Shown piece after piece: positions 25,420-32,065 of a stretch of 64,000 nt of DNA. Each line of letters begins with the position of its first letter. Within the stretch, counting starts at the first letter, position 1. The stretch spans positions 1-64,000 of the forward strand of contig JAUPUU010000066.1 in assembly GCA_030917395.1 (NCBI GenBank). Reading direction: 5' to 3'. The DNA is from Cyanobacteriota bacterium erpe_2018_sw_21hr_WHONDRS-SW48-000092_B_bin.40 (GTDB lineage Bacteria; Cyanobacteriota; Vampirovibrionia; Obscuribacterales; Obscuribacteraceae). A program made the translations under genes and the position numbers. Under the pieces are notes generated by a model that did no database searches, was not told the DNA's origin, and saw nothing but the letters and a program-made list of their open reading frames with translations.

Positions 25420-26451
25420 CTACTCCTTACCTTGAAAAACTTTGATCAGAGCATCTGCCAACTCGTCCATAAAATAGTAGTCTTGAGCACCACAGTAGCG
25501 TTTGACTGTTCCGCCGAACTGGCTTTTGAAATTGGAGAAGCGGCCATAGGGATGGCTTGGTGAGCAGAATTGATCAAAACCGTAGAAGTCATATTGCGTG
25601 CAGCCAGACGCTTTTGCTCGCTGAATAGCTTCCCACTGTAGAGCGTAACCGCTCATCAAGTTGCGCTTGGTGTTGGTGATGCCACCATATAAATAAGTGC
25701 TGGTTTTGCCGAAAGTAATTTGCACTAGACCGCCTAAAATTTCGCCCTCGTGCTCTGCTATAAGAAGCTCTGCCAGCTTGTTTGATAGCAGTGAATTAGC
25801 TAGCTCGACAAAGAATGCCGCTGGTTCAGCTTGAAAGTGATCGCGTCTGGCTGTGATATTTAGAATCGGGTAAAAGCTATCGATTATTTCACTTCGGGTG
25901 CCACTGCGCACGGTGACACCTTTGCGCTGAGAGAGGCGAATGTTATAGCGGCCTTTGGGTTTCATTTGGGCCATAATCTCTTCAAGCGAACAAGTTAAAT
26001 CAAGGCAGAGAGTCTCTTTCGGCAGGAGGTCTATGGGCGAGCGGCCAAATTCCAAGAGCAAATCTGGGGGTGATGGCGGTAGAAGCGGTTCTATTCTTAA
26101 GCCAATTAGCCCCTCTTCTTTTGCCAGGCGTTCACAGGTGCTGATGAGCAGACCAAGGCATTGCCGGGCCAGTTCTTTATTTTCCCAGGGTAGTATCGGT
26201 CCGTGGGGGGCGACTAAGAATCCGGGATTGCTATCGGCTGCATAGTAGAGCAAGCAGCCGGCCACGAGGTTCTCACCCTGGAAGATTCCTAGGCGATAAT
26301 GTTTCAACCCTTGGGCGTGCTTGAACTGCGCCCACTCTATGCTTTGCATAAAGCCGCTGGCTGGATTTTCTGCCACCAAGTTATTCCATTGCCTCGAGCT
26401 AGGGTTTTCTAGCTCGAGGCCTTCTAGAAGGCGCAGCTCAAGGCTTTCCAT
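25420..26451 (-). CDS. FemAB-family aminoacyltransferase or GNAT (lipid II peptide bridge type)
   Basis: 343 residues, the usual size of the single-domain FemX or Mur-ligase-like GNAT proteins. Two GNAT-like halves are visible: residues about 15-160 with SGFMQSIEWAQFKHAQGL, and 160-340 with RYNIRLSQRKGVTVR and STYLYGGITNTKRNLMSGYA, which match the FemAB pattern (R-x2-I-x-x-A-x-K-x-G and the YLYGGS/T loop). These enzymes transfer an amino acid from aminoacyl-tRNA to peptidoglycan precursors or add other groups to lipid intermediates. It follows the spermidine-synthase-like gene with a 4-base gap, so they are co-transcribed. Confidence 0.85.
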   Translation of the reverse strand: MESLELRLLEGLELENPSSRQWNNLVAENPASGFMQSIEWAQFKHAQGLKHYRLGIFQGENLVAGCLLYYAADSNPGFLVAPHGPILPWENKELARQCLGLLISTCERLAKEEGLIGLRIEPLLPPSPPDLLLEFGRSPIDLLPKETLCLDLTCSLEEIMAQMKPKGRYNIRLSQRKGVTVRSGTRSEIIDSFYPILNITARRDHFQAEPAAFFVELANSLLSNKLAELLIAEHEGEILGGLVQITFGKTSTYLYGGITNTKRNLMSGYALQWEAIQRAKASGCTQYDFYGFDQFCSPSHPYGRFSNFKSQFGGTVKRYCGAQDYYFMDELADALIKVFQGKE

Positions 26452-26455
26452 CTAG

Positions 26456-29212
26456 CTAGCTTTGGAAATTGGCTAGAAGCTTATTGATAGCCGCGGTCTC
26501 TGCCGGCATGGCGTTGAGCTCAGCTTGCACCGAATCAACTCGTTTTTGCGCTCTGTTGATTTGATTACCAAGTCGTCTTATTGCTTCTGCTCTCGGTATT
26601 TGCTTCGTGCCGAACTGCACCATATCTTGGCCCTGGTCTTGCCCTTGGTCTTGGCTCTGGTTTTGACCTTGGCCTTGATTTTGGCTTTGCAGATTGTTTA
26701 AGCGCGTCGTCATTTTTTGTACATGACCCTGAGCTTCTTGCAATTCTTGATTGAGACTATCTATGTTTGAGCTACTATCTTTGGCCAGGCTGGCTAAGTA
26801 AGTGCCTATGATTGGTGTCAATTCCTTTGGATATGGTTCGTTTAATTTGGTCACGCCTAGGTCTTTGTACCAGTGGTGTCCGTCTGTATAAACAAGCTCA
26901 CCATCGGCCTTTTTCATGATTACAAACTTGCCGCTGGCATCGCCCCAGGCACTGCTAAACAGTTCAAAGGCACCGGCTACTGGTGGCTCTTGTGGCTCGG
27001 GTGGCCGCTCTTGTGGGTCAACAAAGTTTTGCTCGGCTTTTTCTAAAAGCATTGCTGTGTTCTGCATGTTTTGTACTTCGGAGGCATCTCTTTGACCGTT
27101 AAAGCCATTGTCTGGATCGTTGCCACCATCGTTTGAGTTGTTGTTATCAGAACTATTATCGCCTGATGAGCTATTTGCGCTCTGTGAGGCGCGTCTCAAG
27201 CCTGTGGCTTGTTGTTTTAGTTCAGATGAAATGTGCCAGATTAAAGTGGGATTGTTATACAGTGAAATTATTGTTTTGCCACTTTGCTGATCAATTAGAT
27301 CTGAGCTATTCGATGTTACTCGCAAATAAGCGCTGTCTGTAATTGGCATTACAGTTACGCCGCTGGGTAATACGTCAACGTCTGGGCCAAGTCGGTATGC
27401 TGATTGCAGCAAGTTGCTGCTCACTGACTTGGTGGCATTATCACTATTGCTGTTGGCCGAAGATTCATAACTTGATGGTGCCGAGGTATTGTAGTTTTGA
27501 ATGTTGCGGCTGGAATTGTCGTAATTATTATTGTAGTTGTACTGTCTGGCAGGATATTGATTACCCTGGCTGTCGACAGATTGATTGTTGCTGCCAAAAT
27601 TTAGATTGATAAACCCGGGACCAGTGGCGTAGTTGAGGGGGTTATACCAGCCCCATCCACCGCCCCAGCCACCCCAGCCGCCGCCCCAACCGCCACCCCA
27701 ACCATGGTATCCCCAGTGGTTCCAGTGATCGGCTCGAGCCCAACCGCCCCAGTGACCGCGGTCGCGTCCCCAGCCGCCGTTCCAGCCGCGGTTGCCGCGA
27801 TCAAAACCACGGCCACCTCGGTCTCCCCTATCTCCTCTATCACCGCCTCTATCGCCACGGCCACCGTCACGTCCGCCACCGCCTTCGCGTCCGCCACCGC
27901 CTTCGCGTCCGCCACCACCTTCGTGGCCTCCACCGTGTCCGCCACCGCCTTTGCCGTAGGCTGAGTCAGGGAAGATAAAATTCGCCAGTATGACCACAAC
28001 TGCAAGCGTGGTTATGACGCGTTTGCCGAGATTGAGTAGTGATTCCCAATCTCCGCTCCAGTCGACGAGCTTTTCTTTCAGTAAATTGAGTTCGCTGACA
28101 ATACGAAGGGGTAGTTCTGAAGCGCGTCTGAGCAGGGTGTCTACTAAAGTCTTCAGGTCTAGGGCTTCTAAGAATGTACCGGGATCGACGACAAAGCGAG
28201 AAAGCAAAAGTCTTGTCTTTTGCGGCTGCAGGCCCGGCATTAAGGAGATTACGTCTTCGAATAATTCTTGTTCTTTGGCCTTAGTCTCGGCGCTAGCGGC
28301 AATTAACGGCATGCTTTCATAGTCTGCCGTTAAGGCATTCCACATAGCATTGCTGGCCGCTTCTGCCTGCAAGTTTGCCAGGGTGAGGGGCCTGTCTGTT
28401 TCTAAATAAGAGAGGAAAATTGAGCAACCGTTCTGTTCTGGTTGTGAAAGGGCTTGCAGCGTTTCAAAATTGGCTGGGAATAAGAAGAGATTTTCAAAAC
28501 CAGCCAGTGCTGGTGCTTCTATGGGCGATTGGCTTGAGGTGGCCAGTAAGAATCCCCAGTCTGGGCCATAGCCAAGCTCACTGAAGGAAGGGATGCTAAC
28601 GCGGTAGGGCCGGCTCTCAAGGCCAGCAGCCCGCATACTGTTGAAGATGCTCCAGTAGGCGTTTGGAGTGTTCGATGGCGATACGCCGTTAGTAGCAAGA
28701 ACTGCGCCGGGCGCCATTATTGCTGCCATCGAGCGGTACCATTCTACGCTGTGGAACTTGGCTCCGGCTGGGTCGCTAGCCACTGTCAGGTCAATGACGA
28801 TCAGGTCATATTGTTTCTTTTGCTGCTGGCATTCGGCCACAAATTGCCAGGCGTCGGCTACATGAACCGTGGTGCGCTTGTCTGTCAGGCTGTTGCCATT
28901 AAGCTGCGATAGCTCGCCCTTGGCTAAACTCAAGACTTCTGGGTCGTAGTCAACTAAATCAATGGTGCCCAGTCTTGGTGACTGCAGTAATTCGCGTGCA
29001 GTCAAGCCATCGCCGCCGCCAATAATCAGGGCCTTCAAAGTCTTCGAAGTGATTAAATCTGCGCCATTTGCCACTCGCATTTCAGCCACTTGCAAGGCCG
29101 GTTTTGCTAGCCCTTCGTGATAAATTCTTTCGTCGCGCTGGTCAAACTGTAGATCTCCGTCGATGAAGAGGGCAAGAGAGCCGTCTGGTCGGCGATTGAG
29201 GAAAGTTGACAT
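26456..29212 (-). CDS. Spermidine-synthase-like domain fused to a glycine-rich and a C-terminal unknown domain
   Basis: About 918 residues from the ATG at 29212 (a TTG 9 bases earlier is in frame). Residues about 1-230 are a polyamine aminopropyltransferase-like fold: DGDLQFDQRDERIYHE, the SAM loop IIGGGDGL (about 65-70), LVDYDPE and YDLIVIDLTVASDP, where the catalytic Asp region is altered (DLTVASDPAG instead of DSTDPxGP). Residues about 400-416 form a membrane segment. It is followed by a Gly/Arg/Asp-rich block (421-470) and a Gly/Trp-rich block (475-525), then Asn/Gln/Ser-rich linkers and an unrecognised C-terminal domain with a QGQNQSQDQGQ repeat. A membrane enzyme with a large outer portion is inferred. 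Upstream partner of the FemAB gene. Confidence 0.8.
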   Translation of the reverse strand: MSTFLNRRPDGSLALFIDGDLQFDQRDERIYHEGLAKPALQVAEMRVANGADLITSKTLKALIIGGGDGLTARELLQSPRLGTIDLVDYDPEVLSLAKGELSQLNGNSLTDKRTTVHVADAWQFVAECQQQKKQYDLIVIDLTVASDPAGAKFHSVEWYRSMAAIMAPGAVLATNGVSPSNTPNAYWSIFNSMRAAGLESRPYRVSIPSFSELGYGPDWGFLLATSSQSPIEAPALAGFENLFLFPANFETLQALSQPEQNGCSIFLSYLETDRPLTLANLQAEAASNAMWNALTADYESMPLIAASAETKAKEQELFEDVISLMPGLQPQKTRLLLSRFVVDPGTFLEALDLKTLVDTLLRRASELPLRIVSELNLLKEKLVDWSGDWESLLNLGKRVITTLAVVVILANFIFPDSAYGKGGGGHGGGHEGGGGREGGGGREGGGGRDGGRGDRGGDRGDRGDRGGRGFDRGNRGWNGGWGRDRGHWGGWARADHWNHWGYHGWGGGWGGGWGGWGGGWGWYNPLNYATGPGFINLNFGSNNQSVDSQGNQYPARQYNYNNNYDNSSRNIQNYNTSAPSSYESSANSNSDNATKSVSSNLLQSAYRLGPDVDVLPSGVTVMPITDSAYLRVTSNSSDLIDQQSGKTIISLYNNPTLIWHISSELKQQATGLRRASQSANSSSGDNSSDNNNSNDGGNDPDNGFNGQRDASEVQNMQNTAMLLEKAEQNFVDPQERPPEPQEPPVAGAFELFSSAWGDASGKFVIMKKADGELVYTDGHHWYKDLGVTKLNEPYPKELTPIIGTYLASLAKDSSSNIDSLNQELQEAQGHVQKMTTRLNNLQSQNQGQGQNQSQDQGQDQGQDMVQFGTKQIPRAEAIRRLGNQINRAQKRVDSVQAELNAMPAETAAINKLLANFQS

Positions 29213-29323
29213 GCGTTTCAATTTCTCGCTTAGGGATAGCTTATTAATTTAGCCCAATGACATGTATGCAACATTAAAGAGGCGCTTTTAATACTGCTCG
29301 GGCGTTCAGGGGCTATACTTCCC

Positions 29324-29378: not shown

Positions 29379-30287
29379 ATGAGTTCCCTTCTGAAAATGT
29401 TGCTTTGCAGCTTATTGGCCTTGCCGGTGCTTCCGGTTTGGGCTGGGGATGGCGACTCTGCTGAGGCTGTCGCTAAGGAGCCGACCCCTCCTGTGGCCTT
29501 GGCAGTCAAGAAGAACTCGTCCAAGAGCAAGTCTGCTGCGGCCAAAGAAAAAAAGCCGTTTTACTTAAATCCGTTCAAGCGCATTGCCCACGACAGTAAG
29601 GTTATTTTGGCACCCCTTATTGAAAATGTCGGGGTGCCACTTAAGGCGACAGAAGATAACTTGAAAGCCTTGCAGAGCCCGCTGCGCAATCTGGAAGAAC
29701 CACTTAGTGGTATCAAGACTTCGGTTGGTGAGCTGAGAGAACCGCTTGAAGATTTGAAAAAACCCATGGTCGAAGTCAAGCAACCGATCGTTGAATTGCG
29801 CAAGCCAATCGCTGCATTGAAGCAGCCTCTCACCGATTTACGCCAACCTATAACTGAGCTGTCTAAGCCAATTCGCGAACTAAATGCGCCGATTGATCAT
29901 TTGCAGCGCAGTATGAATTCTTTGCCCAAGCCAATTGAGAGTTTAGCTGAGCCCTTAGGTCAGTTGAAAAAGCCGCTTGATGGTATTGCCGCACCGTTAA
30001 ACAATCTTGAGCCTAGTGTGCGTAATCTAGCTCCTCCTGTGACTGAGCTTTCTGGTTCGGTAGACGTCTTGCAGGCGCAAGTGGCATCACTTGCTGGTGA
30101 GATGAAGGTACTGCGCCAGTCACTACTGAACATTTGCGTTTATATCAGCTTGGCCATTGTATTAGGCTGTGGAATGATTTCAGGCACTTTGATCTGGCTC
30201 ATTACCCACTTTGCCCGCAGCTATGATTTAACTCCCACGCAGGCCGGTCGCTTTGTTGTCAGAGCCGATGAAGTGACCCATAAGTAG
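29379..30287 (+). CDS. Membrane protein with proline-phased heptad repeats
   Basis: 302 residues. A signal peptide or anchor (MLLCSLLALPVLPVWA) and a Lys/Ser/Ala linker (residues 30-60) precede a repeat block from 87 to 248. The 7-residue unit P-[LIMV]-x-x-L-x-x recurs 23 times in register without any insertion, and 16 units have the Pro at the same place. Examples are KPMVEVKQPIVELRK and QPLTDLRQPITELSK. A single membrane segment (about 253-276) and a short tail end the protein. Every heptad carries two hydrophobic positions and many have a Pro, so it is not an ordinary coiled coil. Function unknown; a stalk, spacer or membrane-associated filament is a guess. Confidence 0.8.
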   Translation: MSSLLKMLLCSLLALPVLPVWAGDGDSAEAVAKEPTPPVALAVKKNSSKSKSAAAKEKKPFYLNPFKRIAHDSKVILAPLIENVGVPLKATEDNLKALQSPLRNLEEPLSGIKTSVGELREPLEDLKKPMVEVKQPIVELRKPIAALKQPLTDLRQPITELSKPIRELNAPIDHLQRSMNSLPKPIESLAEPLGQLKKPLDGIAAPLNNLEPSVRNLAPPVTELSGSVDVLQAQVASLAGEMKVLRQSLLNICVYISLAIVLGCGMISGTLIWLITHFARSYDLTPTQAGRFVVRADEVTHK

Positions 30288-30308: not shown

Positions 30309-30980
30309 TTAAACGCTGTCGGTGAGCCGAGCTACTTGAGATGGTTTGTGGCTTTGTGATTTAGCTTTGTCGTGATTGACATGCTTTGAGCTTTTTACCC
30401 CCACCTTGGTCTGCGAGTGAGCCGCACTATCTTTGGTGCCTTTCTTGGCGGATGCAATTACTGGTTTAGATTTGTTAGCGCTGCTTGAGGTCATCACCTG
30501 GTCTGACTCTGCTGATTCGGGTCGCGAGATTGATTCGCCCATGTAGATGTGTTTGAAGTCACTGCGAAGCCCTGACACTGCTTTGAGCAAATCATGATTA
30601 CTGTGTAGCGCTACGTGGACAGCAACGAAACCGCCGATGAGGAGAATACCGACAAGACCAAGGCAGTTAGAGACAATGTCATTTCTTTCGTCTAGTAGCC
30701 ACCAGTCGCCTGCTTTGGGCATTTTACCGGTGAATTGATCGCAAACGTCATTACCAATGGTCAAAATCAAACCAAAGAATGCCACAACAATTGAAAGTAC
30801 AAGACAGCTATCTGGCCAATTGCTAAATAGTGCAGCGAGGCCAAAAAGTAGGGCACCAGTAACAAGCAGGGTTCCTAAACAAAAGTATTGGCGATATCTA
30901 CCTCTCGCCAGTCTGTCACCAATAACGGCACCAATTCCCCCGGCAATAATAAACAGGACAGTTAGGTAAAGTTGAGACAT
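30309..30980 (-). CDS. Membrane protein with Ser/Lys-rich tail
   Basis: 223 residues from the ATG at 30980, with GGAG 6 bases upstream. Four hydrophobic segments are visible (about 4-22, 33-52, 56-77, 105-125), then a soluble tail of about 85 residues rich in Ser, Lys and His. The tail has a Glu/Ser-Arg start and repeated KSQSHK-like patches. No family recognised. It is divergent from the HET-C-like gene. A TATAAT (minus strand, 31007-31012) may be its -10 element. Confidence 0.7.
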   Translation of the reverse strand: MSQLYLTVLFIIAGGIGAVIGDRLARGRYRQYFCLGTLLVTGALLFGLAALFSNWPDSCLVLSIVVAFFGLILTIGNDVCDQFTGKMPKAGDWWLLDERNDIVSNCLGLVGILLIGGFVAVHVALHSNHDLLKAVSGLRSDFKHIYMGESISRPESAESDQVMTSSSANKSKPVIASAKKGTKDSAAHSQTKVGVKSSKHVNHDKAKSQSHKPSQVARLTDSV

Positions 30981-31021
30981 AACCAACTCCGTGTGCTAAT
31001 GCACCGATTATATCTTTCCCC

Positions 31022-31052
31022 TTGACAACGCCTCGGGAATTAAGCTGGTATT
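31022..31052 (+). promoter_or_regulatory. Possible promoter of the HET-C-like gene
   Basis: TTGACA at 31022-31027 is a perfect -35 element. A weak -10 (TGGTAT) follows after 18 bases. The start codon lies about 100 bases further on. The -10 match is poor, so it is only a candidate. Confidence 0.35.
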
Positions 31053-31150
31053 TAGAATTGGCTGTTTTCAGTGTGGTGCAATCAGTTAAAGTACGCACTA
31101 TAAAAGTATGGCTATGTTTGAAGGCGCCTCTGCCAGAGGAAGTTTTGAGA

Positions 31151-32065
31151 ATGAATATTTATTGTTCAATGAACATTGATTGTTCCAGGTTTTCGCGGCA
31201 AATATTGGCATTTTCACTATTTGCTTCGATTGCTTTTGCCTCTGTGCCAGCCGCATCGGCATTTATGACTTTTCCTGCTAATAACAATATTCACCGAGCC
31301 ATTTTAGAGGAAGGCTTGAAGCCCTTTAAGCTCAGCAAAGCCAGCCTGGGATTTATGGCAAAGGGAATGGATAGTCAGGATAATCCCTTCTCTAATAAGT
31401 GGAAAATAGCTGAGCACCATGCTTGCGACAACAATATTAAAGTTGCCTTTCGCTACATAGATGAGCAGACTGCTAAGGCTGTTGAACTGGCCGGTTCTGC
31501 CGATAAAGACTCGGATGCTTGCCGTCAGTCTCTATATGCTCTTGGTGAGGCTATGCATACAGTTCACGATTTTTACTCTCACGCTAATTATGTGGAGTGG
31601 CTGCTGTCTCAAAACAAGCCACTGGAGCCAATTGATCGTAGTGCTGATGGCCAGATTCCAGAGCCCATTCGCACATGTTTCTATTTCTATGAAAGTAGCC
31701 TCAAGCAAGAACCGTTTCTCAGTCACAAAGAAAATGTTCGCCGTTTGCAGGCCCTGCACCCTGAGCTTACTTTTCGCAGTGAAGCTGAATATGTTGCTCG
31801 CAAGCAATCAGAAGATCTGCAATCTGCATTAGACTACGCTTTGAAGTCAGGTCAACTGCTGCACATGGAGCTGAATAAAGATAGCTCAAAGCAGCTGGAG
31901 GGGCAGGTAATGATAGGCCGCGAAGGTAAGAATCTTTTTGATCTGGCGCGCGAGCTCGCTGTTCAAGATACGACTAAACATTGGAAAACTTTTGAGCAAT
32001 TAGTTAGAGCTAAATATGGTGATCGGGCTTCAGCTATAATTGCCGCTCTGGAGAATGCTTCTTGA
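31151..32065 (+). CDS. Secreted HET-C/phospholipase-C-like protein
   Basis: 304 residues from the ATG at 31151. The signal peptide (FSLFASIAFASVPAASA) is cleaved near residue 37. The mature domain shows the zinc-binding pattern of the phospholipase C/S1-P1-like all-helical fold as found in the fungal HET-C family: AEHHACDN (His89, His90) and LGEAMHTVHDFYSHANYVEW (His136, His139, Asp140, His144). These would bind catalytic or structural metals. A secreted lipid hydrolase or binding protein is likely, but the substrate is unproven. It is coupled by a TTGA overlap to a 64-residue gene. Confidence 0.82.
   Translation: MNIYCSMNIDCSRFSRQILAFSLFASIAFASVPAASAFMTFPANNNIHRAILEEGLKPFKLSKASLGFMAKGMDSQDNPFSNKWKIAEHHACDNNIKVAFRYIDEQTAKAVELAGSADKDSDACRQSLYALGEAMHTVHDFYSHANYVEWLLSQNKPLEPIDRSADGQIPEPIRTCFYFYESSLKQEPFLSHKENVRRLQALHPELTFRSEAEYVARKQSEDLQSALDYALKSGQLLHMELNKDSSKQLEGQVMIGREGKNLFDLARELAVQDTTKHWKTFEQLVRAKYGDRASAIIAALENAS

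What the first reader, a model, noticed from the sequence alone, without database searches (positions are those of the whole stretch)
29379..30287. Membrane protein built of 23 in-register heptads with a proline in most of them
From residue 87 to 248 the unit P-[LIMV]-x-x-L-x-x recurs without a single insertion or deletion, and 16 of 23 units carry the proline in the same position. Proline in every turn pair is incompatible with a normal coiled coil, yet the heptad hydrophobic spacing is strict. A signal peptide before and one membrane segment after the block place it outside the inner membrane. I know of no described family with this design.
Basis: partly seen in the sequence, partly recalled or inferred. 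Interest (0 to 1): 0.8.

Follow-up and report, generated by a model that had tools for sequence, protein, structure and literature searches.

The report
Proline-studded heptad membrane protein family
This gene encodes a membrane-anchored rod-like protein whose seven-residue repeat carries a proline at the same spot in most repeats; the pattern is real and strictly conserved in a previously unnamed family of one bacterial group, and looks like an unusual, proline-bent kind of coiled coil whose job is not yet known.

Summary
ORF 29379-30287 (+, 302 aa) has 23 gap-free heptads at residues 87-247, 16 of them with proline at one position (0 of 100,000 shuffles reach 16). The hydrophobic 3/4 spacing runs through residues 81-255, so proline sits at heptad position g. 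It is not a DNA repeat: all four Pro codons are used. Against five genus orthologs the 16 prolines show 47 synonymous codon changes and no amino-acid change. In 46 family members, with the register set from hydrophobic positions only, 498 of 575 prolines fall at g. All gaps in the family alignment are multiples of 7. Members occur in 41 of 50 sampled genomes of the same bacterial family, with paralogs, and almost nowhere else in the class. Paralogs put ordinary residues at the same g position, so this is best read as a proline-rich variant of an alpha-helical heptad (coiled-coil) membrane protein. No curated family fits; the only above-cut-off Pfam hit (baculovirus P10) is reproduced by column-shuffled controls. 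AlphaFold2 (3 sequences) gives long helices at low confidence (pLDDT 45-52). Best explanation: an inner-membrane-anchored, periplasmic, proline-kinked coiled-coil rod acting as spacer or tether. The function is inferred, not shown.

The parts
29379..30287 (+). whole gene, 302 aa, monocistronic: divergent from the gene at 26456-29221 (-), convergent with 30309-30986 (-)
29379..29444 (+). probable signal peptide, residues 1-22 (VWA|GD)
   Evidence: by inspection of the sequence; no predictor was run
29445..29561 (+). residues 23-61, K/A/S/P/E-rich variable linker
   Evidence: length and sequence vary between orthologs
29556..29636 (+). residues 60-86, conserved segment with an NP[LF]K-type motif just before the heptads
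   Evidence: similar motif in paralogs
29637..30119 (+). 23 heptads, residues 87-247, 16 with P at heptad position g
29619..30143 (+). full extent of the a/d hydrophobic register, residues 81-255, 25 heptads
29910..29930 (+). P-less S/T-type heptad (residues 178-184, SMNSLPK); S or T at g in the genus orthologs and several distant relatives; AlphaFold2 breaks the helix here (181-185)
30057..30134 (+). juxtamembrane heptads without P, residues 227-252, among the best conserved parts
30135..30206 (+). transmembrane segment, residues about 253-276, continuous with the heptads
30207..30284 (+). short C-terminal tail, residues 277-302, presumably cytoplasmic
   Evidence: by inspection; topology not tested

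Best explanation
A type I-like membrane protein of a family largely confined to one bacterial family (probably Obscuribacteraceae/Vampirovibrionia; taxon inferred). It is exported by a signal peptide and held in the inner membrane by one C-terminal helix. About 25 unbroken heptads form an alpha-helical rod in the periplasm that self-associates, most likely as a parallel coiled coil (mixed L/I/V/M at a, L at d), through the proline-free juxtamembrane heptads and onward. Prolines at g, always two turns apart on the same side of the helix, remove one backbone hydrogen bond per heptad and bend or supercoil the rod in a regular way without disturbing a and d. It most likely works as a spacer or tether that reaches from the inner membrane toward peptidoglycan or the outer membrane. 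Shown: anatomy, register, conservation and distribution. Inferred: helicity through the prolines, oligomerisation, location, spacer/tether role.
For: Register and proline fixed far beyond chance. In 46 members, with the register set from a/d alone, prolines at a-g are 0,1,3,0,23,50,498. All gap runs in the block alignment are 7, 14, 21, 28 or 35. The 16 P codons show 47 synonymous and 0 amino-acid changes across 5 orthologs, while b, c, e and f change freely. Spacing 3/4, L-dominated d and mixed a are the coiled-coil signature; paralogs have helix-compatible residues at g. Residues at -1 and -2 of P are helix-favouring (0.68) and N-cap residues at -1 are depleted (0.17 at P sites vs 0.36 elsewhere), which argues against a new short helix starting at each P. 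AlphaFold2 gives helices 65-180 and 186-281. Phmmer and hmmscan hits are nearly all coiled-coil proteins, and column-shuffled heptads give the same kind of hit while full shuffles give none.
Against: AlphaFold2 confidence is low (pLDDT 45 and 52), with only three closely related sequences. b and c positions in the wider family are rich in G, S, N, D and T, unlike a strong coiled coil. Rod length varies from 15 to 31 heptads among members, so it is not a fixed ruler. No partner gene is shared across genera. Nothing tests oligomerisation or location.
Confidence: 0.5

Rival explanations
1. The prolines kink every helix so regularly that the block is not a classical coiled coil but a distinct periodic superhelix (open coil or tube, alone or around a partner), a new structural class.
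For: The g-site proline is as conserved as core Leu (mean genus identity 0.92 for both). A rigid-body estimate with 10-26 degree kinks every 7 residues gives a superhelix of 6-15 A radius and 69-151 A pitch (geometry assumed, not measured).
Against: Paralogs keep the same register with few prolines, so the scaffold does not need them. No confident model.
Confidence: 0.2
2. Amphipathic lipid- or lipoprotein-binding belt, apolipoprotein-like, with prolines as joints between short helices.
For: Proline-punctuated amphipathic helices are the apolipoprotein A-I design (from general knowledge).
Against: Only two hydrophobic positions per seven (a and d), a narrow stripe. Prolines every 7 rather than 11 or 22 residues. 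N-cap residues depleted before proline. Own transmembrane anchor. No apolipoprotein family among the Pfam hits shown (the 25 best).
Confidence: 0.08
3. Helical hairpin: the block folds back at the P-less S/T heptad (178-184) and the two arms pair in an antiparallel monomeric coiled coil.
For: The helix break is predicted exactly there (181-185). S/T at g in this heptad in the genus orthologs and some distant relatives; the alignment places most length variation N-terminal of it.
Against: Low-confidence model from three sequences. The C-terminal arm continues into the membrane, so arms are unequal. Some distant members have P at this heptad.
Confidence: 0.15
4. Mostly disordered or extended periplasmic linker in which the heptad is a binding register for a partner (for example peptidoglycan or a multi-copy partner protein).
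For: High proline content; low pLDDT; many G/S/N/D residues at b and c.
Against: Strict whole-heptad indels and a/d conservation are not expected of a disordered linker.
Confidence: 0.07

Closest known systems
Classical parallel coiled-coil stalks with a membrane anchor (for example SlaB S-layer anchor, PDB 8qox; hit)
   Same: exported, long heptad region, membrane-anchored; phmmer 3.9e-07 over 100 residues of heptads
   Different: no proline at g in the aligned stretch, no shared domain, different lineage; similarity is of heptad type and NCBIfam SlaB is far below its cut-off (28.5 vs 700)
YhgE/Pip and EsaA proteins with xxxLxxG heptads (from general knowledge; not fetched here)
   Same: a helix-disfavouring residue (G there, P here) recurs once per heptad in a membrane-anchored extracytoplasmic stalk
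   Different: no match to those models among the NCBIfam hits shown (best 25); different membrane topology
Nucleopolyhedrovirus P10 (PF05531) and PEP C-terminus (PF04513)
   Same: heptad-like Leu-rich profile; P10 score 33.5 bits is above the Pfam cut-off 29.8
   Different: column-shuffled versions of this block score 29.3, 30.0 and 23.5 bits, so most of the score is heptad composition; unrelated organism and architecture
Phage inner-membrane spanin Rz (periplasm-bridging; PMC5295617 abstract)
   Same: inner-membrane anchor and helical periplasmic region bridging toward the outer membrane (functional analogy only)
   Different: N-terminal anchor, no proline heptads, part of a lysis pair (general knowledge); no lysis genes identified among the neighbours scanned here

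Membership tests
Classical alpha-helical coiled coil | unbroken 3/4 hydrophobic spacing (a, d) over many heptads | tested here: met
   25 heptads, 81-255; family 15-31 heptads
Classical alpha-helical coiled coil | residues compatible with continuous helix at b, c, e, f, g | tested here: not met
   P at g in 16 of 25 heptads here and 46% of family heptads; b and c rich in G/S/N/D
Classical alpha-helical coiled coil | helical oligomer in solution | not testable with these tools
   AlphaFold2 monomer helical but low confidence
NPV_P10 (PF05531) | score above the gathering cut-off that is specific to the sequence order | tested here: not met
   above cut-off (33.5 vs 29.8), but column-shuffled controls score up to 30.0
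Curated NCBIfam families | score above curated cut-off | tested here: not met
   the 25 best families shown are all far below cut-off; best E-value SMC_prok_B 36.6 vs 567
Apolipoprotein A-I-like 11/22-mer proteins | 11- or 22-residue proline-punctuated amphipathic repeats | tested here: not met
   period is 7; in-register P counts 16 at period 7, 8 at 14, 3 at 11
Phage tape-measure proteins | phage tail gene context and homology | tested here: not met
   only weak PHROG hits (E 0.0004); no phage tail family among the eight neighbouring genes scanned

The most novel reading that the evidence does not exclude
A new class of periodic protein structure: a membrane-anchored superhelix in which a proline in nearly every heptad sets a constant kink, giving a wound, spring-like or tubular periplasmic rod, expanded into paralogs within one bacterial family.
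Probability: 0.2. Interest if true: 0.75.

Novelty: new variant of a known kind. Interest (0 to 1): 0.5.

Why it matters
Proline is regarded as a breaker of coiled coils, yet here it is held in one heptad position across a whole protein family with the same constraint as the core leucines, and the register is never broken. A structure would show directly whether and how a long coiled coil tolerates, or uses, a proline every two turns, which bears on coiled-coil prediction and design. It would also assign an architecture to a multi-copy envelope protein family of a little-studied bacterial lineage.

Tried and rejected
DNA-level tandem repeat: rejected, only a two-copy weak array was found and Pro codons are mixed. 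Homology to Pfam NPV_P10: rejected by column-shuffled controls. Cyanobacterial-type hits outside the class: the ones read are tandem 7- or 21-bp DNA repeats or plain K/D-type coiled coils. Plasmid hit (Mycobacteroides): exact PPVDELD repeats, unrelated. Operon partner: none shared across genera. Structure-library search was not run because both models are low confidence. Papers on proline in every heptad: none found in the held library.

Full report
Observation. The ORF at 29379-30287 (+) encodes 302 residues. From residue 87 to 247 there are 23 ungapped units P-[LIMV]-x-x-L-x-x. Sixteen carry the proline; the other seven have S (4), N, Q or E. Unit position 2 is always L, I, V or M, and position 5 is L in 19 of 23. 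In 100,000 shuffles of the block the best in-register proline count was 10. The hydrophobic spacing in fact runs from 81 to 255, i.e. 25 heptads, and the heptads next to the membrane have no proline.

Heptad geometry. The hydrophobic residues are spaced 3 and 4, so they are a and d of a coiled-coil heptad, and the proline, one residue before a, is at g. In this protein a is mixed L/I/V/M and d is mostly L, as in parallel coiled coils (general knowledge).

Not a DNA repeat. The 16 prolines use CCG 6, CCA 5, CCT 3 and CCC 2, and the only tandem array found is two weak copies of 21 bp. Against five genus orthologs (60-98% identical over the block) the 16 proline codons show 47 synonymous changes and no amino-acid change, whereas b, c and f change at about 60-78% of their sites, and e at just under half, in the two most distant pairs. 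Mean identity to this protein over eight genus sequences is 0.92 at g, 0.92 at d, 0.84 at a, and 0.55-0.65 elsewhere. The proline is therefore under purifying selection about as strong as the core leucine.

Family. Searches of related genomes find orthologs in all five other sampled genomes of the genus, two further proline-rich paralogs there, and relatives in 41 of 50 sampled genomes of the same family (my tally). Outside that family only one match looks real, in the same order (L033: 18 heptads, 7 of 8 prolines at g). The matches elsewhere in the class lie in large ORFs and look like generic coiled-coil proteins. The common architecture is: signal peptide, variable linker, a short conserved NP[LIF]-type segment, heptads, one membrane segment, short tail. 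Some members carry a longer tail.

Register across the family. I fixed the register in 46 members from a/d hydrophobicity only, with no use of proline. Over 1,093 heptads the prolines fall at a-g as 0, 1, 3, 0, 23, 50, 498. Zero at a and d is built in by the hydrophobic criterion; the concentration at g over b, c, e and f is not. In the alignment of 16 proline-rich members every gap run in the block is a multiple of 7; the aligner favours in-register matches, but a real phase shift would be expected to show up in the register test. Members are related, so these counts are not independent events (effective number about 35).

Are the prolines helix starts or helix kinks? If every unit were a short helix starting at proline, S/T/D/N should be enriched just before it. 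The opposite is seen: at -1 these residues are 0.17 before P against 0.36 at heptads without P, and helix-favouring residues are 0.68 against 0.42. Likely paralogs have S, Q, E, D, N, K or R at g in the same register. Both points favour one continuous, kinked helix, but they are indirect.

Structure prediction. Confidence is too low to settle the fold or to search structure libraries. The predicted break (181-185) coincides with a proline-less S/T heptad that recurs in the genus and in several distant members. It may be a hinge or a hairpin.

A simple rigid-body calculation shows what regular kinks at g would do: kinks of 10-26 degrees every 7 residues turn one helix into a superhelix of roughly 6-15 A radius and 69-151 A pitch, and shorten a 262 A rod to 158-249 A. 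This is geometry under stated assumptions, not a result about this protein.

Known families. Pfam and NCBIfam return many coiled-coil families; of those listed all are below cut-off except NPV_P10 (33.5 bits, cut-off 29.8). Column-shuffled blocks, which keep the heptad composition but destroy the order, score 29.3, 30.0 and 23.5 bits with the same model and hit similar families; the two fully shuffled blocks hit nothing. The P10 match is therefore mainly a heptad-composition effect. PDB matches are mostly designed or natural coiled coils. No paper on a proline in every heptad was found in the held library.

Distribution of the DNA-level pattern. A search for five perfect P-heptads (CCN-NTN-N6-NTN-N6) in 279 genomes of the class found, by my reading of the listed matches, diverged (non-tandem) runs only in the same family; the matches elsewhere in the class and nearly all in the phylum sample are 7- or 21-bp tandem repeats or low-complexity DNA.

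Context. The gene stands alone, divergent from a spermidine-synthase-like gene and convergent with an unnamed membrane protein gene. The flanking order is conserved in the genus but no neighbour is shared across genera, so context gives no functional partner.

Verdict. A real, conserved, previously unnamed family with an unusual design, best described as a proline-rich variant of a membrane-anchored coiled-coil rod. Helicity, oligomeric state and function remain to be shown.

Noticed in passing
window 26456-29221 (-): A 921-aa ORF fuses an N-terminal spermine/spermidine-synthase domain (PF01564, 2e-22) to a hydrophobic segment, a long G/H/R/D-rich low-complexity stretch and a Q/N-rich coiled C-terminus; a similar fused ORF (916 aa) is in L039.
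   Followed up: partly
window 25420-26451 (-): FemAB-family protein (PF02388, 1.3e-41) next to the spermidine-synthase-like fusion.
   Followed up: no
window 31022-32065 (+): Exported-looking protein with sub-threshold Het-C / VWA7_N similarity, possibly zinc-phospholipase-like.
   Followed up: no
G000 contigs C13, C153, C175 (L003, L002, L004): Probable paralogs in the same genome with the same architecture and register but fewer prolines (4-8 at g).
   Followed up: partly
L086, L091 and other loci: In other genomes of the phylum, DNA tandem repeats of 7 or 21 bp yield heptapeptide-like ORFs that mimic this family in profile searches.
   Followed up: partly
L220 2389-3303 (Mycobacteroides plasmid NC_021278.1): Protein with ten or so near-exact PPVDELD repeats; convergent proline heptad from a recent tandem repeat.
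   Followed up: yes
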